Origin: Synechococcus sp. MU1643
GTDB lineage: Bacteria; Cyanobacteriota; Cyanobacteriia; PCC-6307; Cyanobiaceae
Assembly (NCBI RefSeq): GCF_020514095.1
Contig: NZ_VTKY01000003.1
Coordinates: forward strand, 124,001-188,000
Direction of reading: 5' to 3'
Length of the DNA stretch: 64,000 bases
Shown here: in pieces, positions 9,583 to 47,488 of the stretch
Numbering within the stretch: position 1 is the stretch's first letter
How the letters are laid out: every line of letters starts with the position of its first letter
The notes under the pieces: model-generated
What the model saw: the letters and a program-made list of their open reading frames with translations, nothing else
What the model was told of the DNA's origin: nothing
Databases searched by the model: none
Program-made: the position numbers and the translations under genes

Positions 9583-10938
9583 ATGACCCCAGCTGCCACC
9601 AAAGCTGCCAAGCCGAACATTGTTCTTCTGGCCAATGCTGACGGCAAGGTGAAGGAAGTCGCCAAGGATTCCGACAAAGAGGCCAAAAAGGCCCCCGCAC
9701 GCCGACGAACCAGCAAGGCGAGCGCAAAGGACCTGAGCGCAGCGGCCGACGAACTGCTGGCCGCTGCGGATCAAGCCAAGCCTTCGGGAACCACCAAAAA
9801 GGCTGCGGCGAAAAGCACCAAGGCCAAAACCACCACTAAAAAGGCCACAACAAAGAAAAAATCCACCAAAGCCTCGACAGCCAAAGCAGCTGCATCGAAA
9901 CCAACCGCCGAAGAGAAAGCCAAAACCGCAGCCGCTGAGAAGGAAGCCAAGGCCAAAGCCCTGGCCAGCATCAAGATCGGTCCCAAGGGCGTTTACACAG
10001 AAGACTCCATCCGGGTCTATCTGCAGGAAATCGGGCGGATTCGATTGCTGCGGCCTGACGAAGAGATCGAATTGGCCCGCAAAATTGCCGATCTTCTTTA
10101 TCTCGAGGAGCTGGCTTCTCAATTTGAAAGTGACAACGGCCGGGAACCCGACAACAAAGAGTGGGCGGCCCTGGTGGAAATGCCGCACATCCGCTTCCGC
10201 CGGCGCTTGATGCTGGGCCGACGGGCCAAGGAAAAGATGGTGCAATCCAACTTGCGCCTGGTCGTCTCGATTGCCAAGAAGTACATGAATCGGGGCCTGA
10301 GCTTCCAAGACCTGATTCAGGAAGGAAGCCTTGGCCTGATTCGGGCAGCCGAAAAGTTCGACCACGAAAAGGGCTACAAGTTCTCCACTTACGCCACCTG
10401 GTGGATTCGTCAGGCAATCACACGAGCCATTGCCGACCAGAGCCGCACCATCCGCCTGCCGGTGCACCTCTACGAAACGATTTCCAGGATTAAGAAAACC
10501 ACCAAGGTTCTCTCTCAGGAATTCGGCCGGAAGCCAACGGAAGAGGAAATCGCCGAATCGATGGAAATGACCATCGAAAAACTGCGCTTCATCGCCAAGA
10601 GTGCCCAGCTGCCGATCTCCCTGGAGACCCCAATCGGCAAGGAAGAGGATTCCCGCCTGGGCGATTTCATCGAAGCCGATATCGAGAATCCCGAGCAGGA
10701 CGTTGCCAAAAACCTGCTTCGTGAAGACTTGGAGGGTGTTTTGGCCACCCTCAGCCCCCGCGAACGCGATGTGCTGCGCCTGCGCTATGGCTTGGACGAC
10801 GGCCGGATGAAAACCCTCGAGGAAATTGGCCAGATTTTTGATGTGACCCGTGAACGGATCCGTCAGATCGAAGCCAAGGCCCTGCGCAAATTGCGCCACC
10901 CCAATCGCAATGGGGTGCTCAAGGAATACATCAAGTGA
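9583..10938 (+). CDS. rpoD: Principal RNA polymerase sigma factor (group 1 sigma-70)
   Basis: The essential housekeeping sigma factor. Residues 1-125 form an unusual Lys/Ala/Thr-rich low-complexity tail (repeats such as [15 protein letters not shown]). The conserved core follows: region 1.2 [16 protein letters not shown], region 2 from [20 protein letters not shown] through [16 protein letters not shown], region 3, and region 4.2 with the -35-binding helix-turn-helix [20 protein letters not shown]. The protein ends KEYIK. Its last codons form the left edge of the imperfect repeat flanking the integrated element, so the gene is intact but its original downstream DNA has been pushed about 7.8 kb away. 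Confidence 0.97.
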
Positions 10939-10975
10939 GCCTGAAGCATCGCTGAAAAGCGCTGCTACGACTAAA

Positions 10976-10997
10976 TTTCTAGATATAGCCTTGACAA
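10976..10997 (+). repeat. attL core (left direct repeat)
   Basis: The left copy of the 22-bp repeat begins 37 bp after the rpoD stop codon. It contains TTGACA, a perfect -35-like hexamer, but I see no good -10 box 16-18 bp further on. The same 22 bp recur at 18757-18778. Confidence 0.85.
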
Positions 10998-11005
10998 ATA
11001 AACGC

Positions 11006-11041
11006 TGAGGTACCTCAATTAGTACCTCAGCTCGTACCTCA
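11006..11041 (+). repeat. Left iteron block, 12-bp period
   Basis: Three copies of GTACCTCA begin at 11010, 11022 and 11034, exactly 12 bp apart. The first is part of a perfect palindrome TGAGGTACCTCA (11006-11017). The block starts 12 bp inside the att core and runs into the start of the integrase gene. Arm-type binding sites for the integrase, or operators controlling it, are the likely roles (inference). Confidence 0.7.
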
Positions 11042-11043
11042 CC

Positions 11044-12870
11044 CTGGCTTCTGCACCGTTCCGCTACGCCTGGAAAAAGGGCAACGCTTGGTGGTTCAAG
11101 CGGCGGGTACCTACCAGTTGCAGAGAGGCCTTAGGCACCGCCCAATGGGCGTACAGGCTCGGTTCGATCAACGACGAAAACGGCTGTCGAATCAAAGCGG
11201 CGGAATACGAGCGGAAAACCAATGAGCTGATCAGCACGATCACGAGCGAAGTGCCGCCGTCACCAGCAGCCGTGGAGCTGCTGGCACGGCGCATCGCCGC
11301 AAAGAGCAACAACAGGCGTTTGGACGTGCCTGAAGGCATTGCTGGTGAGTCGACGCTGCTGCTGAACAAGGCCAAGCGCTCAGCCATCGCTCAACACCTG
11401 AAAGACGACACGGCAGTGGTGCCGCTTGAGGCGGCACCAACAACCGTCGAACTGACGAAAGGCGAAGACGGCGGCGTCCGACTCGCAACGCAACTGCCTG
11501 ACGCAAGACACCTGCTGACGAGGTTTGAACTCACTGAGGCCCAGCTCCAGCAGATCGAAGAGGCGGCAGCAGGCGAAACGCTGACGATGGAAATCGGGCA
11601 AGTTGCTGCACCGATGGAAGAAGCGCCTTCGGGCTTGCTGACATCCGACGAAGAACTGGCGGAGGAGCTGAAGAAAACGAAAGCCCGCCTGATCGATGAA
11701 GGTCAATACGTCGAAGGCGACCTGCTGCGCCGAGCCACAGCACTGGTCGCCAGCCTCCAGGGCAAGCACGAGGGAAGAAGGCTGGACGTCAATCGCGATG
11801 GCTTTGAACTGGTGCTGGAGCCAGAGGAGGTTCCCGCCGTCAAACGCAAATTGGAAGACCTGCCGCGCCTGTATGTCGAAGCCAAGAAAGGGGCTTATGA
11901 CACCAAGCACAAAGCCATGGAGCATTTCATCGAAGTAACGAGGAAACAACATCTGGATCAAACGTCGATCAGCGACCGAGAAAAGCTGATCAGCGATCAC
12001 CAAAAGAAAGGAAGGGAGAAACGCGGAAAGAAAGCCTGGAAGGATTCCACCTTCATGACGAATATGCGTCACCTGAACTCACTGTTCAAATGGGCGGTGG
12101 ACATGCAATACATCGAGAAGAATCCAATTCAAGGATGGTCGAACGTATGGATACCAGAGAAGTCAGAGACAGACGAAGAAGACGACAGCAAAGGATTCAC
12201 AGTTGATCAAATCAGGAAGATCGACAAGATCATCACCAACGGCGTTTTCGATAATTCAGAAGACTTACATTTGTGGACTCTGCAACGATGCTTCGGAGGG
12301 CGCATCTCAGAGTTTGCTGGCCTTCGGCACTGTGACTTCAGAGAATTCAAAGGGCGAAAGTGCATCCATATAGTCAGACACGAATTACGCTCATTGAAAA
12401 ACAACAAGACCAAAAAGATCTTGCCAGTCCCACCTTGCATTGAGTGGATTTGGGACATGTATGCAAGCGATCAAACAAGCGTAATTTGGCCGAAGTTCAT
12501 GACCCAACGAAAAGACAAAATGGGTAAGACGAAAACAGACTGGGCAACTACATTTGCTGGAAATCTTGCTCGTTGGATGAAGAAATTCGCGCAAGACAAC
12601 AACCTCGATAGAGAATTCCAGAACGAATACTGGACAACGAAGGTTTACAGACGGTCGATCGGATCAATCCTTAGAGACCTAACTGGAGAAGACCACGTGA
12701 GCAGAGACCACCTCAACCTCCTGCGAGGACATGCCGACGGCTCCATCGCAAGGATCTACGACGACCCAGAAGTAAGGCAGGTCGCCAGGGCTGCCGAGAT
12801 CTACGCGAGGGTCACAGGCTTCGACAAGATTGCCCTGGCTATGGGTGAGTCTGAGTGTCTGACTGTCTGA
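11044..12870 (+). CDS. int: Tyrosine recombinase / integrase of the island
   Basis: The reading frame is open from 11023 to 12870. The part from 11044 codes for a typical integrase N-terminus (FRYAWKKGNAWWFKRRVP), so the gene must start well before the first conventional start codon, a GTG at 11251. The best candidate is CTG at 11044, giving 608 residues. The C-terminal catalytic domain has the first Arg in GGRISEFAGLR, a variant second box around KVYRRSIGSIL, the GH of LLRGHADG and the nucleophile Tyr in RIYDDPE. A SAM-like core-binding region lies near residues 265-370. It presumably acts on the adjacent att core. Alternatives are another non-canonical start or a 5'-damaged gene. Confidence 0.85.
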   Translation: MASAPFRYAWKKGNAWWFKRRVPTSCREALGTAQWAYRLGSINDENGCRIKAAEYERKTNELISTITSEVPPSPAAVELLARRIAAKSNNRRLDVPEGIAGESTLLLNKAKRSAIAQHLKDDTAVVPLEAAPTTVELTKGEDGGVRLATQLPDARHLLTRFELTEAQLQQIEEAAAGETLTMEIGQVAAPMEEAPSGLLTSDEELAEELKKTKARLIDEGQYVEGDLLRRATALVASLQGKHEGRRLDVNRDGFELVLEPEEVPAVKRKLEDLPRLYVEAKKGAYDTKHKAMEHFIEVTRKQHLDQTSISDREKLISDHQKKGREKRGKKAWKDSTFMTNMRHLNSLFKWAVDMQYIEKNPIQGWSNVWIPEKSETDEEDDSKGFTVDQIRKIDKIITNGVFDNSEDLHLWTLQRCFGGRISEFAGLRHCDFREFKGRKCIHIVRHELRSLKNNKTKKILPVPPCIEWIWDMYASDQTSVIWPKFMTQRKDKMGKTKTDWATTFAGNLARWMKKFAQDNNLDREFQNEYWTTKVYRRSIGSILRDLTGEDHVSRDHLNLLRGHADGSIARIYDDPEVRQVARAAEIYARVTGFDKIALAMGESECLTV

Positions 12871-12971: not shown

Positions 12972-14255
12972 TCAGAATAAGTTTCCAAGCTTGTCCATTT
13001 CTTCGTTGATAAGCTTCGTCCGAAGTTCATGGTTGATCCAATAGCCAGGAAGCCTAATTCCACCAGGACATAGCCTTGCTGGTATCTTCTGACCAGGCTT
13101 CACCCATGGGATCTGAGCAATAGTGCGCCCCATCTGACCCTTGTTCTTTTCAGCAGTCGTTCGATCTCCCTGCCAAACTTCACTCCATAGCTCATCAAGC
13201 GTGAACCATTCACGCTGAGGGTTTGAACAGAACTGAGAAGTTTCCTTGAGCATTGCAACCTCTTGCAAGTAACGAGCATTGTCGTCATCAGCGAGATTGA
13301 CCAGATGTGCTGGCAAATCCAGCGAAGCCCCTTCTCTATAAGCAAGAACAGCAGCAAGAAGGATTGAGTCGCGCTCTTCGGCCAAACGGTCAGTGTCAAT
13401 AGGCTCGGCCCTGGTTCTGGTTGTCGGAATAATTTGATAACGGCGGTTGCCAGTGGGGTCGCTTAAGAAGTTGTGGCTGTCGTTGATCGTTCCACAAAGA
13501 ACAAAACCACGCTCGTGCGTTTCCGACTCTTGGCCGTACTGGCGAACAAAATCATCACGCTGGGCGCTGATAAAGCGCTTTACGCCGTCAGTCGCCTCAA
13601 AACGACCAGCAACTCGCTTGCCAAGCTCAGCTAACTCAGCAGCGGCGAACTGGTGGATGGTCTGCAAGACCTTGGCAGTGGGCTCACCGTTAGGTGGCAG
13701 AGAGATGGAATCGGTGATCCAGCCACGGCCAACGATCGTTTGCCAGAAAGAGGACTTTCGCCCACCTCCAGATCCCTGGAGCGCAACCAAGTAATCGTAT
13801 TTACAGCCAGGGTCAAACTGTCTCGCAACAAAAGCAATCAGCCAGCGCTCCATGTATGCGCTGTATAGCTCTTCGTACTCAGAGACCTCCCCTGGGCGAA
13901 GGAAGGTAGCAACGATGGAGGAAAGATCCGCTGGCTCCAAAACACCCTCTGCGTGCCTGGCCTCTAAGCCAAGTAAGTACTCGCGGACTGGGTGATAGCT
14001 GTATTGGTGAGCAGCTTCCTGCAACGCGTCATAAGCAAGAGCCCTCGACGCAATTACACCCTTCTGCTCATCCAACTCAAAGTAGATGCGCTTTGCCTTC
14101 TTCTCGGGCAGTAAGCGACCATCAAGCTCGATATCACCACGCATTTCATTAAAGCGAAGGCGACTCTTACCATTCTCATCCTTGTACATTTCAAGGATAA
14201 GGTTGCGACATTGGATAGGAGATCTCACCTGGATCTCGCTGGCATTAAAAGACAT
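12972..14255 (-). CDS. VapE/VirE-domain P-loop protein (satellite replication type)
   Basis: A 427-residue protein of the virulence-associated E family, found in phage satellites and integrative elements and related to superfamily-3 helicases. Visible hallmarks: the pre-helicase segment YDALQEAAHQYSYHPVREYL, a P-loop-like LQGSGGGRKSSFWQ (a variant, since the usual form is GxxGxGKS/T), AELAELGKR and then FISAQRDDFVRQYG, and the sensor region CGTINDSHNFLSDPTGNRR. No primase domain is attached. The ATG at 14255 is preferred over an upstream frame extension because it begins just before the conserved region. It is the last gene of a leftward run and has its own terminator. Confidence 0.82.
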   Translation of the reverse strand: MSFNASEIQVRSPIQCRNLILEMYKDENGKSRLRFNEMRGDIELDGRLLPEKKAKRIYFELDEQKGVIASRALAYDALQEAAHQYSYHPVREYLLGLEARHAEGVLEPADLSSIVATFLRPGEVSEYEELYSAYMERWLIAFVARQFDPGCKYDYLVALQGSGGGRKSSFWQTIVGRGWITDSISLPPNGEPTAKVLQTIHQFAAAELAELGKRVAGRFEATDGVKRFISAQRDDFVRQYGQESETHERGFVLCGTINDSHNFLSDPTGNRRYQIIPTTRTRAEPIDTDRLAEERDSILLAAVLAYREGASLDLPAHLVNLADDDNARYLQEVAMLKETSQFCSNPQREWFTLDELWSEVWQGDRTTAEKNKGQMGRTIAQIPWVKPGQKIPARLCPGGIRLPGYWINHELRTKLINEEMDKLGNLF

Positions 14256-14333
14256 TGGCGGTTGTATCAGTAAACGTGCTCGGCAACTGCACAAAAAAGA
14301 AGGCCGTGATGACGGTCCAACGAGCAGGAAGCC

Positions 14334-14495
14334 TCAGAGCTTCCCTTCAATCACCTGCTTGGCATAGGCCGTCGCGGCACGACGGATCAACACCGAACGC
14401 GAGACGTTCTTCAACCCAGCGGCTTCATCGATCATCCTGAGCTGATCAGGAAGAAAGCGAGTTCCTTTGGGTGAGTATGTGTTTAGATTCGCCAT
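14334..14495 (-). CDS. Ribbon-helix-helix DNA-binding protein
   Basis: A 53-residue protein: a short N-terminal strand (NTYSPKGTRFLPDQLRMI), then two helices (DEAAGLKNVSRSVLIRRAA and AYAKQVI). This is the size and layout of Arc/CopG-type dimeric repressors. It lies between the VapE gene and two small unknown genes on the same strand, suggesting it regulates the island, perhaps through the inverted repeats at 15267-15318 (inference). Confidence 0.65.
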   Translation of the reverse strand: MANLNTYSPKGTRFLPDQLRMIDEAAGLKNVSRSVLIRRAATAYAKQVIEGKL

Positions 14496-14639
14496 AAGTA
14501 AGGAAATAGGAGCGCCCCTTAAAACGCTCCTAGCAGCAAGTGAAGTGGACCGCCAATCGCACGCACGAGGAAATGCGTACATACTAATTTTAGCGGCTGA
14601 TATTGAACAAGGAGCACGTTTTGACTGTCAACAACAGTA

Positions 14640-15355: not shown

Positions 15356-16039
15356 TTACCGCGCTGTGCGTTCTAAGCCAAGTCGTTTCATCGTTCTCGC
15401 CACCTGAGTTGGCTGCCAAGCGCTCTTGCCAGCGGGCGTTTTGACGCCTGCGGCCATCAGTGCATCAGCGATCTGAGCGAGCGTTGCAGTGTTCGTGGTG
15501 AAGGCAGATAGAAAGCCCCGAAGCCTCTCTGCCTCTGAATCAGCCTTTGCTTGCTGAGCAGCCCTTGCTCGTTCTTGATTTGGCCGAAGCCCTCCCAACT
15601 TCACCCCGCGCGCCTTGGCTGCCGCCAGGCCCGCTTTAGTTCTTGCGCTGATGAACTCCCGCTCCTGCTCAGCCAACGCTGAGTAGATATGAAGCTGGAA
15701 CTTATCCGCATGTGGCATCGAGGCCACCTTGAATTCCAAGCCCTTCTCCTCCAGCAGCGAGGCGATAAAGGAGACACGACGCGACAAGCGATCAAGACGC
15801 GCCACGAGCAGCGTTGCTCCAGTTGCCTTGCACTGAGCGATGGCTTTGGTCAGCTCAGGACGATCGTTGTCAGTTGCGGTTTCGACTTCCTGGTAACTCG
15901 CAAGCTCTTCGCAGCCATCAGCGTCAGGGCAGCAAGCGCTCAAGAAGACATCCAAGTCGCGCCGCTGGGCATCCAAGCCGTAATTACGGCCGTTCTTGCT
16001 GTCGCGAGACAAGCGGAGGTAGGTGACGAATTGGCCCAT
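15356..16039 (-). CDS. Serine recombinase (resolvase/invertase family)
   Basis: A 227-residue small serine recombinase. The catalytic domain starts FVTYLRLSRDSKNGRNYGLD with the nucleophile Ser in YLRLS, continues with LLVARLDRLSRR (the conserved Arg cluster), and has the long E-helix LAEQEREFISARTKAGLAAAK. The C-terminal part (ATLAQIADALMAAGVKTPAG, then QPTQVARTMKRLG) is a helix-turn-helix. It may resolve dimers, invert a segment or move the element. It is the second recombinase of a different mechanism in this island. Confidence 0.88.
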   Translation of the reverse strand: MGQFVTYLRLSRDSKNGRNYGLDAQRRDLDVFLSACCPDADGCEELASYQEVETATDNDRPELTKAIAQCKATGATLLVARLDRLSRRVSFIASLLEEKGLEFKVASMPHADKFQLHIYSALAEQEREFISARTKAGLAAAKARGVKLGGLRPNQERARAAQQAKADSEAERLRGFLSAFTTNTATLAQIADALMAAGVKTPAGKSAWQPTQVARTMKRLGLERTAR

Positions 16040-16258
16040 GCAGCCAATTTACGCCGACCAACGGACGTTGACCCTGTAAATAGTCCAATTTCGGCTTTGC
16101 CTTAAAAGCCAAGCGACTCAAGAGGCTGACGGATTCTGATAAAGCAGCCAGAAGACGACCAAGACCATTGCCATTACTGGCCATCAAGAGCTGCTGAGGC
16201 AATGAGAGCCTGACTGACACTTGTATCTAATGGCTAATCAAAGGAAAGAACCAAGCAA

Positions 16259-17089
16259 TCATTCATTGCAGAAGTCGGCCGCAGACGTGTAAAGCGAAAC
16301 CTTTTCCTTATCTGACGCGGCCAAATCTAAAGAGGCCATTCCTCGCAACCAAATCTTATTGCCATCAATAGTTTGCCCAGGACTCATACATTCTGGGTAG
16401 CTACTTATCCGATTGTCAGTGAAGTAATCTCCTTTTGCACGGTAGGAAGCCTTGACAACAACCCGTCTGACCTCATGTTCCGACTTATTGGTGATCTTGT
16501 AATAAGCATCCCAGTGATGCGAATTGATTCCATAGTCAGACATATCCCTCCGCTTGATTTTGACATCCGAGATCTCTAAAGCAGGCGGGAGCATTGAGTT
16601 GTAAAGAGTTTTCTTGCCATAGACAACTTCGCGACCTCTATTATTTAACCTAGCCGTCTTGTTAACAATTTTCTTCTCTCCAAGCTCAATCGCTAACTGA
16701 TTGCGCCAATCATCTTTAGTTGCAATCGCACCACAAGAGAAAAGGATAAAGAAGAAAGCAGCTATGGCCAGTGTGGACTTGATCGTCTTAAGCGGCATAG
16801 CGATGCCGCCATTTTTGAGGAGCGAAATGATTTTATCTACGTCCTTGGAATCAAGCGAAAAGTATTCTGATTGGGGGAGGCGCTTTGAAGCATATAGGCG
16901 CTGGAGTTGCTTTTCGATTGCCCCTGGGTTATTGACGAAGCTTGCGCTGATTAAAGTATTTGAGCTGCCTACCTTTAGTTGCTTAAATCGTGACCTAGGG
17001 TCCAAGGTTATTCCGACCTTGTAAACGCCAGAAGAGTGCCTGAGCAGGTAAACCCATCCTTGAGCTGCTGTTTCGGGTCTTCCAGGCAT
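16259..17089 (-). CDS. GIY-YIG-like (T5orf172/MUG113 type) protein with membrane segment
   Basis: A 276-residue two-part protein. Residues 10-95 resemble the T5orf172/MUG113 branch of GIY-YIG nucleases (GWVYLLRHSSGVYKVGITLD, then an Arg and IEKQLQRLYASKRL). Residues 105-121 are strongly hydrophobic (STLAIAAFFFILFSCGA), then about 150 residues of a polar domain with LPPALEISDVKIKRRDMSDYG and SEHEVRRVVVKASYRAKGDY. The reading frame is continuous, so this is one gene, although an internal ATG before the hydrophobic part could also yield a separate lipoprotein-like product. A/T-rich relative to the backbone. Function unknown. Confidence 0.65.
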   Translation of the reverse strand: MPGRPETAAQGWVYLLRHSSGVYKVGITLDPRSRFKQLKVGSSNTLISASFVNNPGAIEKQLQRLYASKRLPQSEYFSLDSKDVDKIISLLKNGGIAMPLKTIKSTLAIAAFFFILFSCGAIATKDDWRNQLAIELGEKKIVNKTARLNNRGREVVYGKKTLYNSMLPPALEISDVKIKRRDMSDYGINSHHWDAYYKITNKSEHEVRRVVVKASYRAKGDYFTDNRISSYPECMSPGQTIDGNKIWLRGMASLDLAASDKEKVSLYTSAADFCNE

Positions 17090-17192
17090 TTAGAGATAGT
17101 TGTACAGGGCCAGGAAATGCAATCGCTCAACTGCATTAGCCATCAAGCTGTTGAAGGGAGCATGCCAGAATCTCACTGAAAGATGGACACAA

Positions 17193-17852
17193 ATGAAAGT
17201 CTACCTGAGACTAATCGCGCTTTTGGCTGCCTTTGGAGCGACCGCATGCACCTCCGAAGAACAAAGGGCCGCCCAAACGAAGGCACAGGAAGCGGTCACG
17301 CGGTGCCTTGGATCAAACGAAAAGTCAATATGCAAGAGCGCGATAAGTCAATCGGACTACTTGAGCAAAAGGGACTTGATACGTGTCGAAACCAAGTACG
17401 AAACAATCGTCAAAGCAGAACAAAAGAGAAATCAAGAGAAAAGGGAGAAGGAGCGTAAAGAGAAGAGGGAAAAGGAGCGACTAAGTAAAGTAAGGGAAGG
17501 AGAGGTTATTGTGAATGCACTGGCCAAGCAAGTGAACTATTACCAAGACAACTGTGAGAAGAGGGTTATATCCAGAAACGTATTTGGCGTAGAGCGTATT
17601 TGGGAGAACTGCGTAGGAGACGACCTATTGAGTGGAATGTTTGGTGTCTGGGGTAGAGATCAAAACGGCTGGAAGAAAGCGATGTTCCTCACACACGAGA
17701 TGTGGAACGGTTTAAGTGCCTCGGAGAAAGCCAGTCTCCGCGTATGGCTGAAAGAACATAATGTCAGAAACATCTATACGGGCAGAGTTGTCCCATCAAC
17801 AAGGTTCTCCGCGAATACAATCACTATTGACGAAACAGTCTGGAGGAATTAA
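17193..17852 (+). CDS. Putative lipoprotein with coiled-coil segment
   Basis: A 219-residue protein. The ATG at 17193 gives a lipoprotein signal peptide (MKVYLRLIALLAAFGATAC) with lipobox-like ATAC. A highly charged Lys/Glu stretch at about residues 75-105 (QEKREKERKEKREKERLSKV) should form a helix or coiled coil. The C-terminal third contains GMFGVWGRDQNGWKKAMFL and WNGLSASEKASLRVWL. No family recognised. It diverges from the GIY-YIG/membrane gene (103 bp between starts) and converges with the next gene, leaving only 8 bp. Confidence 0.7.
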   Translation: MKVYLRLIALLAAFGATACTSEEQRAAQTKAQEAVTRCLGSNEKSICKSAISQSDYLSKRDLIRVETKYETIVKAEQKRNQEKREKERKEKREKERLSKVREGEVIVNALAKQVNYYQDNCEKRVISRNVFGVERIWENCVGDDLLSGMFGVWGRDQNGWKKAMFLTHEMWNGLSASEKASLRVWLKEHNVRNIYTGRVVPSTRFSANTITIDETVWRN

Positions 17853-17860
17853 TAGCGATC

Positions 17861-18472
17861 TCAGTCCATTGAATAGGTCTCATCGTAAATATCCGTCAAG
17901 GCTGTCCCCGCAAAATTCCAATACGCAGTGCCCCGTATAGGCCCCTCGTGGTTGAGGAGCTTGTTTGTCAGGTAAGACAAGGCCCACGCTTCGCCTTCAT
18001 ATTCAACTTGTCGACCATTCAGGACGGTGCAGGTATGACCCCCACTGACGAAGTCCAATCGACTTCCCTCGGGGATTCCCATCTCAATGAAGTTGAGAGA
18101 CGGTCGACGAGATCGTTTGATCTTCTCTGCTGAAGCACGAGCCTCAACATCGACTTGCTCGGCTTCCGCTTGCATGGCTGGCGTCATGTCCTCCAGCTTC
18201 ATCAAGTCCAGGAGCCCGATCGCTTGCTCAGGCTCAATGCTGAAGAACTCCCGCCTTGGGTTGACTCTGTAAGGGCCAAAGGCGTTGTGGAAGGCTTTTT
18301 CCACCTTGTCCATATCAGCCACTCTGGCCGCGTAGGCGCACTCAAACGGAAGGGGTACGCCTGTTGTGTAGAGGTCGTTGAGACGCGCCTCAACCTCACG
18401 ACCTGTCTTTCCAATCTTGACCATGCCAGGCATGGCGGGATTTGTCAGGACGTAGACGATGCCCTCGTTCAT
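17861..18472 (-). CDS. GIY-YIG-like (T5orf172) protein with RAMA-like C-terminal domain
   Basis: A 203-residue protein. The N-terminal domain (IVYVLTNPAMPGMVKIGKTG, then EARLNDLYTTGVPLPFECAY and KAFHNAFGPYRVNPRREFF) is a good T5orf172 match. After a helical linker, the C-terminal 70 residues (FIEMGIPEGSRLDFVSGGHT, then YEGEAWALSYLTNKLL and GTAYWNFAGTALTDIYDE) resemble the RAMA domain found with restriction and methylation systems. Such proteins occur on mobile elements; their function is not settled. It faces leftward at the right end of the island. Confidence 0.75.
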   Translation of the reverse strand: MNEGIVYVLTNPAMPGMVKIGKTGREVEARLNDLYTTGVPLPFECAYAARVADMDKVEKAFHNAFGPYRVNPRREFFSIEPEQAIGLLDLMKLEDMTPAMQAEAEQVDVEARASAEKIKRSRRPSLNFIEMGIPEGSRLDFVSGGHTCTVLNGRQVEYEGEAWALSYLTNKLLNHEGPIRGTAYWNFAGTALTDIYDETYSMD

Positions 18473-18506
18473 CGGCCCTGCTCATCAGTCGACCTCTTGA
18501 ACCTCT

Positions 18507-18656
18507 TTACATCGTCTTGAGGAAAGTGCCGCCGCAATCGGTGCATTCACATATTTCGCTATTCCCGAGCTCCCAGTGAGGAGCCAGAGCACGTTCACTG
18601 CAAACGAAACAACCTGGTACCGCGCTCGGTACCTCATCTGGTACCTCGTCCGCTTC
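18507..18656 (-). CDS. Possible zinc-ribbon micro-protein without standard start
   Basis: A 49-codon open frame, bounded upstream by TAA, ends in a clear four-cysteine pattern: CFVC, 18 residues, then CTDC followed by GGTFLKTM. Its upstream half translates the iterons into DEVP-like repeats. No ATG, GTG or TTG occurs in the frame, so expression is doubtful. It may be a remnant of a gene cut by recombination, or use an unusual start. Confidence 0.3.
   Translation of the reverse strand, partial: EADEVPDEVPSAVPGCFVCSERALAPHWELGNSEICECTDCGGTFLKTM
18617..18652 (+). repeat. Right inner iteron block, 12-bp period
   Basis: Three GTACC-type units start at 18617, 18629 and 18641, again exactly 12 bp apart (GTACCGCGCTCG, GTACCTCATCTG, GTACCTCGTCCG). 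They match the left block in sequence and period and lie 104 bp inside the right att core. Confidence 0.7.
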
Positions 18657-18881
18657 TTAGCCGTTGGCCCAGCGAGGGTTTCAGCCGTGAGCGGAAAACA
18701 TCAAATGAACATCAAGTGATCCTCAAGAACCGCTGAGAAGCATCTCTATCACTGAGTTTCTAGATATAGCCTTGACAATGAAACCCTGAGGTACCCCAGC
18801 TGGTATTTCGTCCGCTTCTAAGCCGTCGGCCCAGCCAGGGCCTCAGCCGTGAGCGGAAAACATCAAATGAACATCAAGCAA
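18641..18881 (+). repeat. 162-bp-period duplication spanning the right island end
   Basis: The segment 18641-18719 recurs at 18803-18881 with about 90 percent identity, sharing for example GTGAGCGGAAAACATCAAAT. The right att core lies between the copies. The outer copy is preceded by GTACC units (18791, 18803) that stand 12 bp from the core, exactly as the left block does inside the island. This looks like the fused ends of an older, internally deleted element. Confidence 0.7.
18757..18778 (+). repeat. attR core (right direct repeat)
   Basis: The right copy of the 22-bp core, identical to 10976-10997. The 47 bp to its left, back to CATCAAGTGA, resemble the rpoD 3' flank, so the element carries a diverged copy of the gene end it targets. 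Confidence 0.85.
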
Positions 18882-47428: not shown

Positions 47429-47488
47429 GGTTTCGACCTCGTTCAATCAGTTGCCAATTTCAACGTTGGCTGAGGGGTACATCGCCTT

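What the first reader, a model, noticed from the sequence alone, without database searches (positions are those of the whole stretch)
16259..18472. Cargo cassette: two GIY-YIG-like proteins around a lipoprotein
The three cargo genes alternate in strand and share an A+T-rich composition. Two carry T5orf172-type domains, one with a membrane part and one with a RAMA-like domain associated with modification systems, and between them is a lipoprotein with a charged coiled coil. This could be an undescribed defence or superinfection-exclusion cassette (inference).
Basis: inference. Interest (0 to 1): 0.65.

Follow-up and report, generated by a model that had tools for sequence, protein, structure and literature searches.

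The report
Two unlike nucleases in island cargo
A small mobile island in a probable cyanobacterium carries, in a slot whose contents differ in a sister island, two probable anti-virus DNA-cutting proteins, one soluble and built to sense DNA and one tethered to the membrane, with an orphan lipoprotein between them; they look like separate genes sharing a berth rather than one new system.

Summary
The three genes are real: A 16259-17089(-), B 17193-17852(+), C 17861-18472(-). They fill a 2.47-kb variable slot of a small integrative island at the 3' end of a sigma-factor gene. No co-occurrence was found: B had no relative in any collection searched, A no full-length relative, and the one sister island found has 42 nt where this cargo lies. 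So "one cassette" is not supported. C is a full-length member of PADLOC's candidate defence family PDC-S57 (E 8e-77). Its C-terminal half has the RAMA fold (CcrM, Z 11.3), and at least 7 of 15 relatives read lie near restriction-modification, DISARM, Mza or defence-type helicase genes. C is most likely a modification-sensing (type IV-like) or restriction-accessory nuclease. A has an N-terminal GIY-YIG nuclease, one predicted transmembrane helix and a probable periplasmic beta-sandwich. It works most like SNIPE, the membrane-bound GIY-YIG nuclease that cuts phage DNA during injection, but is not SNIPE: no DUF4041, reversed order, no match to its model. 35 of 111 GIY-YIG domains read (nearly all in related genomes) also have a hydrophobic segment behind an N-terminal nuclease. 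B is an orphan lipoprotein whose role is guessed.

The parts
16259..17089 (-). Protein A, 276 aa: T5orf172/GIY-YIG nuclease (11-90), predicted transmembrane helix (about 106-124), C-terminal part with probable beta-sandwich (about 170-273), predicted periplasmic
   Evidence: Pfam, hydropathy, flank charges, active-site columns 11 of 13 kept, weak model pLDDT 42 overall
17193..17852 (+). Protein B, 219 aa from the ATG: lipoprotein-type signal peptide, K/E/R-rich stretch, orphan C-terminal part
   Evidence: Sequence; no relative
17861..18472 (-). Protein C, 203 aa: T5orf172/GIY-YIG nuclease (4-90), helix, RAMA-fold domain (123-203); member of PDC-S57
   Evidence: Pfam, PADLOC PDLC05041 E 8e-77, model pLDDT 80, fold match, active-site columns 13 of 13 kept
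16081..18553 (.). Variable cargo slot; 42 nt (11912-11953) in sister island L059
   Evidence: Alignment of both sides
15356..16039 (-). Serine resolvase next to the slot; two copies in the sister island
   Evidence: Pfam Resolvase E 1e-23
14334..14582 (-). Ribbon-helix-helix protein of the island core
   Evidence: Pfam RHH_1 E 2.9e-4
12972..14294 (-). VapE-type helicase of the island core
   Evidence: Pfam E 3.2e-44
11251..12870 (+). Tyrosine integrase of the island (listed start; an upstream start gives a longer frame)
   Evidence: PHROG integrase E 8.6e-14; 88% relative in G032
10928..11024 (+). Left end repeat of the island, overlapping the 3' end of the sigma-factor gene
   Evidence: 97-nt direct repeat, 79% to the right copy
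18709..18805 (+). Right end repeat of the island

Best explanation
The interval is the variable cargo slot of a small integrative island, now filled by genes that are not a fixed set. Two encode probable anti-phage nucleases that tell self from non-self in different ways. C is a soluble GIY-YIG nuclease guided by a RAMA DNA-binding domain; it acts as a stand-alone modification-sensing (type IV-like) or restriction-accessory enzyme that cuts incoming DNA whose adenine-methylation state is foreign. A is a GIY-YIG nuclease held on the cytoplasmic face of the inner membrane by one helix; a probable beta-sandwich in the periplasm docks at or near phage injection machinery, so that entering DNA is cut at the membrane, as in SNIPE. 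B, transcribed away from A and of the same A+T-rich make-up, is most likely an envelope lipoprotein acquired with A, perhaps its periplasmic partner. Shown here: genes, domains, kept active-site residues, RAMA fold of the model of C, defence neighbours of C's family, difference of the slot in a sister island. Inferred: topology of A, every cleavage activity, modification sensing, any link between A and B.
For: C: full-length PDC-S57 match E 8e-77; RAMA fold Z 11.3 to CcrM, 9.0 and 8.7 to MPND; at least 7 of 15 relatives' loci have a neighbour within six genes matching a PADLOC model at 1e-20, among them type I RM (L061, L178), DISARM DrmD and DrmMI (L185) and MzaC/MzaE (L186), against 8 families with one member each among 77 control proteins from 13 windows; own genome without matches to three N6-adenine methyltransferase families; GIY-YIG enzymes with another reader domain (winged helix) prefer Dam-methylated DNA in vitro (PMC11037411, passages). 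A: nuclease domain with 11 of 13 conserved columns kept, hydrophobic helix with +4/0 flank charges; SNIPE precedent (PMC13190303); recurrence of N-terminal nuclease plus hydrophobic segment (35 of 111). Slot.
Against: No activity was tested. MPND's RAMA did not bind 6mA DNA better than plain DNA (PMC9963953, passages). Relatives of C live beside type I adenine methyltransferases (L061, L178), so a general 6mA-cutting enzyme would be awkward there. The PADLOC control is of arbitrary chromosome windows, so it shows company, not cooperation; PADLOC helicase models are broad. Foldseek's own E-values for C's RAMA match are weak (0.0099). A has lost a His kept in 103 of 113 domains (Gln63), has no full-length relative, and its model is poor. 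TM calls rest on hydropathy only.
Confidence: 0.5

Rival explanations
1. One three-gene defence or superinfection-exclusion system: B in the envelope, A in the membrane and C in the cytoplasm acting together.
For: The genes are adjacent within one slot; A and B diverge from one short gap and share low GC.
Against: No co-occurrence: 147 other genomes; 15 neighbourhoods of C relatives, L190, L059; C differs in composition; B and C converge, so no operon.
Confidence: 0.12
2. Selfish or homing nucleases: A and C are free-standing T5orf172 homing-type endonucleases that spread by cutting empty sites, as in phages, with no defence role.
For: T5orf172 is a common domain of putative phage homing endonucleases (PMC10448857, passages); C's nuclease part has matches in 207 phage records, none covering 80% of it.
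Against: No zinc-finger domain of the kind described there (CapR, DUF723, DUF4397) is reported for A or C by Pfam at E 1; C has a RAMA fold instead; A is membrane-anchored by prediction; the site is a cargo slot in an island with its own integrase and resolvase.
Confidence: 0.13
3. A is a broken or fortuitous fusion: a nuclease fragment joined to a separate secreted protein that begins at Met98, with no joint function.
For: The stretch from Met98 (MPLKTIKSTLAIAAFFFILFSCGA) looks like a secretion signal (sequence); no full-length relative; the family's conserved His is Gln.
Against: Catalytic-type Tyr14, Arg34 and Glu59 are kept; the frame is open throughout; proteins with the same order, nuclease then hydrophobic segment, recur, including A's nearest relatives L140 and L154.
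Confidence: 0.2

Closest known systems
SNIPE (PD-lambda-1), membrane-bound GIY-YIG defence nuclease (PMC13190303; abstract, passages and section 9 seen)
   Same: Compared with A: GIY-YIG nuclease predicted on the cytoplasmic face of the inner membrane, held by one helix; catalytic Glu present
   Different: SNIPE has the helix near the N terminus, DUF4041 in the middle and the nuclease at the C-terminal end. A has the nuclease first, the helix behind it, about 150 residues predicted in the periplasm, no DUF4041 and no match to the PD-Lambda-1 models at E 1
PDC-S57 (PADLOC candidate defence family)
   Same: C matches over residues 1-201 of 203, profile 1-208 of 212, E 8e-77
   Different: Nothing that the tools show; the family is a candidate by PADLOC's naming, and a search for the name found no paper
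GIY-YIG-RAMA fusions, mentioned as possible 6mA-dependent type IV enzymes (PMC11037411, passages)
   Same: C has this two-domain make-up by fold
   Different: The paper names no member in the passages seen and tested none; whether C is one of theirs is unknown
Winged-helix-GIY-YIG enzymes Ahi29725I and Apa233I (PMC11037411, passages)
   Same: GIY-YIG nuclease fused to a DNA-reading domain
   Different: Reader is a winged helix, unrelated in fold to RAMA; order is reader first, nuclease second by their name
Tycheposons of marine picocyanobacteria (recalled; one search gave listings only)
   Same: Small integrative island with a tyrosine recombinase, a replication-type helicase and variable cargo
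   Different: Sits at the 3' end of a sigma-factor gene; the nearest tRNA gene in the window is at 47488

Membership tests
SNIPE / PD-lambda-1 (for A) | GIY-YIG nuclease domain with catalytic Glu | tested here: met
   T5orf172 E 2e-8; Glu59 in a column with Glu in 112 of 113
SNIPE / PD-lambda-1 (for A) | DUF4041 domain | tested here: not met
   Pfam scan of A at E 1 lists only MUG113 and T5orf172; DUF4041 is found by the same library in L066 and L070
SNIPE / PD-lambda-1 (for A) | Membrane anchor N-terminal to the nuclease | tested here: not met
   A's hydrophobic segment starts at residue 106, behind the nuclease at 11-90
SNIPE / PD-lambda-1 (for A) | Match to the PADLOC PD-Lambda-1 models | tested here: not met
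   A lists only PDC-S57 E 1.4e-4 over the nuclease at E 1; L066 and L070 match at 1e-137
SNIPE / PD-lambda-1 (for A) | Cleaves phage DNA during injection | not testable with these tools
   Needs phage and labelled-DNA assays
PDC-S57 (for C) | Full-length match to the family model | tested here: met
   E 8e-77, residues 1-201, profile 1-208 of 212
PDC-S57 (for C) | Company of known defence genes | tested here: met
   For relatives: at least 7 of 15 loci (control). Not for C itself: no PADLOC match for the neighbours scanned in the window other than A and B
RAMA domain (C, residues 123-203) | RAMA fold | tested here: met
   CcrM Z 11.3, MPND Z 9.0 and 8.7, next SAND 6.3, on a predicted model of about pLDDT 90 there
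RAMA domain (C, residues 123-203) | Sequence match to a RAMA profile | tested here: inconclusive
   No RAMA match in Pfam at E 10 for three family members; PMC9963953 notes low sequence conservation of RAMA (passages)
Modification-dependent (type IV) restriction enzyme (for C) | No cognate methyltransferase beside it or in the genome | tested here: met
   No methyltransferase family among the island proteins scanned; own genome 0 matches to PF01555, PF02384, PF02086; other methyltransferase families not tested
Modification-dependent (type IV) restriction enzyme (for C) | Cleavage only of modified DNA | not testable with these tools
   Needs purified protein and methylated substrates
T5orf172 homing endonuclease (for A, C) | Zinc-finger DNA-binding domain (CapR, DUF723 or DUF4397), as described in PMC10448857 | tested here: inconclusive
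   None listed by Pfam at E 1, but CapR is a custom profile of that paper that was not on hand
Tycheposon (the island) | Integration at a tRNA gene (recalled) | tested here: not met
   Nearest tRNA gene in the window at 47488; end repeats lie on the sigma gene's 3' end

The most novel reading that the evidence does not exclude
A and its look-alikes are a second kind of membrane-tethered GIY-YIG defence, built independently of SNIPE: nuclease first, membrane helix behind it, swappable membrane or periplasmic parts, spread through one family of (probable) picocyanobacteria, with lipoprotein B as the outer sensor in this island. Cutting at the entry point would then be a general, repeatedly invented way to tell phage from self.
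Probability: 0.22. Interest if true: 0.72.

Novelty: new variant of a known kind. Interest (0 to 1): 0.48.

Why it matters
If A works as proposed, cutting viral DNA at its point of entry, so far shown for SNIPE, has a second layout with the domains reversed, and that layout recurs in the bacterial family searched. C is a compact test of a question left open in print: whether a RAMA domain steers a nuclease by adenine methylation. Both are single genes of under 850 bp that can be moved into laboratory strains.

Tried and rejected
Tried without result: close relatives of A, B and C in viral contigs by single-protein scans (these reach close relatives only) and of A and B in genome contigs; B in phage records; the integrase in viral contigs; PDB sequences with the C alignment (0 matches at E 1); the name PDC-S57 in the paper library (0 papers); 'phage defence candidate' with 'embedded' and 'PADLOC' (0 papers); NCBIfam for A, B and C (0 families at E 1).

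Considered and dropped: B as a restriction enzyme (PADLOC REase_II, E 0.0026 over 46 residues). A's beta part as a glycoside-hydrolase or toxin-pore domain: on a model of mean pLDDT 42 the second look gives Z 8.4 falling smoothly through many unrelated beta-sandwiches, so only 'probable beta-sandwich' is kept. One clade of membrane-anchored nucleases that includes A: the tree does not resolve it. B as kin of small secreted proteins near relatives of C and A by a C-x8-C-xx-A motif: 3 of 214 signal-peptide-like ORFs against 0.4 in shuffles, but the motif was chosen after looking.

Rows and limits. The 109 GIY-YIG loci (L066-L174) are 29 new loci given plus 80 picked by me for spread from its match listing, which was cut short; one (L134) is another locus of the window's own genome. 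Hydrophobic segments are by Kyte-Doolittle only (19-residue window, 1.6 or more). Of the 64 ORFs outside the three layouts counted, L115 has hydrophobic segments behind a domain that starts at residue 132 and L138 a weak N-terminal one. The tree used 105 of 113 domain rows; 8 were dropped as identical or under 60 residues. Control windows: 15 fetched; one was a 446-base contig and was left out, one (L203) gave no ORF of 250 aa, leaving 13 windows and 77 proteins. Searches scanned neighbours that I chose; one search scanned all 42 of at least 250 aa but prints only 25 of 143 families and not which member matched, so for the 8 loci not named (L060, L175-L177, L179-L181, L187) the absence of a match was not established.

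Full report
What is there. Three ORFs fill 16259-18472: A (276 aa, minus), B (plus; taken here from the ATG at 17193, 219 aa; an upstream TTG gives 250 aa) and C (203 aa, minus). A and B diverge; B and C converge. From its gene content I take it to be a small marine-type cyanobacterium (inference; no call names it).

The island. A tyrosine integrase (11251-12870), a VapE helicase (12972-14294), a ribbon-helix-helix protein and a serine resolvase (15356-16039) precede the cargo. A 97-nt direct repeat (79%) at 10928 and 18709 brackets them, and the left copy overlaps the end of a sigma-factor gene. Of 148 genomes searched, own included, only G032 has a close integrase (88%; two others match weakly). 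Its island L059 lies in the same place with the same core, two resolvase copies, and between them one 424-aa ORF. That ORF reaches no family reliably (best is BioC, E 0.054, so methyltransferase-like at most). Aligned side by side, the 2,473 nt of window cargo (16081-18553) correspond to 42 nt in L059 (11912-11953), between the second resolvase copy and the right-end segment. L059 holds no match to A, B or C at E 1e-3.

Co-occurrence. Among 147 other related genomes C has full-length relatives in G007 (75%) and G059 (59%), with weaker domain-level matches in eight more; A has only nuclease-domain matches, in 19; B has none. Scans for close relatives found none of the three in viral contigs and no A or B in genome contigs. 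Phage records gave no B, one domain match for A, and 207 records for C's nuclease part, none covering 80% of C. A Pfam search over 392 genomes of the family (200 have T5orf172) led to 14 loci with C relatives of 56-75% over the full length, G007 included. Fifteen neighbourhoods of C relatives (those 14 plus G059) and the viral contig L190 hold neither B nor A.

Protein C. It matches PADLOC PDC-S57 over its whole length (E 8e-77). A nine-sequence alignment gave a model of mean pLDDT 80, about 90 over residues 131-200. Residues 123-203 align with the RAMA domain of CcrM (Z 11.3, rmsd 1.9 A, 80 residues) and of MPND (Z 9.0 and 8.7), ahead of SAND domains (6.3); residues 1-106 align with Slx1-type GIY-YIG nucleases (Z 4.6). 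Foldseek alone puts CcrM and MPND in ranks 1-3 but with weak E-values, 0.0099 at best. All 13 columns that are at least 70% conserved among 113 domains are kept in C.

Neighbours of C's family. At least 7 of 15 loci have a neighbour within six genes that matches a PADLOC model at 1e-20. Specific: type I RM in L061 and L178, DISARM DrmD and DrmMI plus PDC-S11 in L185, MzaE, MzaC and Vsr in L186. More generic helicase or nuclease matches: L182, L183, L184. For the other 8 loci one search does not show which members matched, so I do not claim that they have none; L060 has a DUF6998 neighbour. In 77 proteins from 13 arbitrary windows of the same genomes only 8 PADLOC families appear, one member each (SspA, DndA, IetA, mad2, mad3), perhaps housekeeping relatives. 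The control is not island-matched, so this shows that C's family keeps company with defence genes, not that it works with them. On a 29.5-kb viral contig (L190) a 47% relative lies directly behind genes that read, by inspection, as hsdS and hsdR.

What C probably does. A paper on 6mA-dependent type IV enzymes reports that winged-helix-GIY-YIG fusions prefer Dam-methylated DNA, and mentions GIY-YIG-RAMA fusions as untested candidates (PMC11037411, passages). Against 6mA reading: MPND's RAMA bound double-stranded DNA no better with 6mA, and in CcrM the domain contacts only the backbone (PMC9963953, passages). The host genome has no match to PF01555, PF02384 or PF02086, which suits an enzyme that attacks methylated DNA, but relatives coexist with type I methyltransferases. 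I put defence for C at about 0.7 and modification dependence at about 0.45.

Protein A. T5orf172 at 11-90, then a hydrophobic segment from 106 with flank charges +4 and 0, then about 150 residues that a weak single-sequence model makes partly a beta-sandwich. Eleven of 13 conserved columns are kept; one Ile is Val25 and the His kept in 103 of 113 domains is Gln63. A is not SNIPE: no DUF4041 and no PD-Lambda-1 match. SNIPE is held by an N-terminal helix with the nuclease in the cytoplasm; without the helix it is toxic; it cuts lambda DNA during injection (PMC13190303; abstract, passages and section 9 read). A would bring the same kind of nuclease to the same surface by the opposite layout. Among 111 domain-bearing ORFs in 109 loci, 30 have an N-terminal nuclease with a hydrophobic segment within 60 residues behind it and 5 more have one further on; 12 have a hydrophobic N-terminus and a C-terminal nuclease, and the two of these tested are SNIPE by PADLOC and Pfam. 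A's nearest relatives by BLAST, L140 (44% over 95 residues) and L154 (40% over 85), carry C-terminal hydrophobic segments and lie 8.6 and 0.7 kb from tyrosine recombinases, the first of these below Pfam's cut-off. The domain tree is poorly resolved: it needs 16 changes among four layouts, but no starred branch forces more than one origin of any. I put a SNIPE-like role for A at about 0.4. The listings (one open-access library; 25 of 579 and 15 of 31 papers shown) showed no paper whose title or abstract start describes GIY-YIG nucleases of this reversed order.

Protein B. A lipoprotein-type signal and a K/E/R-rich stretch; only weak matches in Pfam, PHROGs and PADLOC and none in NCBIfam. Low GC and the divergent start suggest arrival with A (inference). 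Its function is the least certain: an envelope partner of A, or an independent exclusion factor.

Verdict. The reading as one undescribed cassette fails its own test. In its place: two unlike probable defence nucleases, one in a known candidate family and one of SNIPE-like principle but different layout, with an orphan lipoprotein, in a variable island slot.

Noticed in passing
window 10928-11024, 18709-18805, 18790-18878: The island sits at the 3' end of a sigma-factor gene, not at a tRNA gene; behind the right end repeat a further copy of the end segment follows after 162 nt (90% over 89 nt), as if an earlier insertion had left a scar.
   Followed up: partly
L059 8751-9467, 9828-11102, 11196-11870: In the sister island two serine-resolvase copies flank the one cargo ORF; the second copy, with its 5' flank, is the closer match to the window's single copy. 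This hints that resolvase-plus-cargo units are stacked or exchanged.
   Followed up: partly
L066 352-1899, L070 424-1899: Canonical SNIPE (PD-Lambda-1 models at 1e-137, DUF4041 present) occurs in the same bacterial family as the window.
   Followed up: partly
genus g17; example L174 472-1014: Many genomes of one genus show a T5orf172 match at E about 3e-5; the example read (L174) has hydrophobic segments behind the nuclease. It could be a near-core membrane nuclease gene of that genus; only the example was read.
   Followed up: no
L060 8507-8977, L176 10153-10650, L181 2249-2722: Small proteins with an N-terminal GE...(I/V)QVKT-like pattern, nuclease-like by eye, lie directly beside three C relatives; one is DUF6998, the other two reach no reliable family.
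   Followed up: partly
L176, L177, L179, L184, L185, L187 beside the C relatives: Short ORFs with secretion-type N-termini (MKRLLL...) cluster next to several C relatives (by inspection); no background rate was measured.
   Followed up: no
window 17193-17852; L187 5745-6551; L188 13062-13652: B shares a C-x8-C-xx-A motif behind its signal peptide with two secreted proteins near relatives of C and A: 3 of 214 signal-peptide-like ORFs, 0.4 expected; motif chosen afterwards.
   Followed up: partly
G118:C1:18220-18498 (L009, L065): A stretch resembling only C's second half (33% over residues 105-193) with one in-frame stop, perhaps a decayed relative or a RAMA-type domain in another setting.
   Followed up: no
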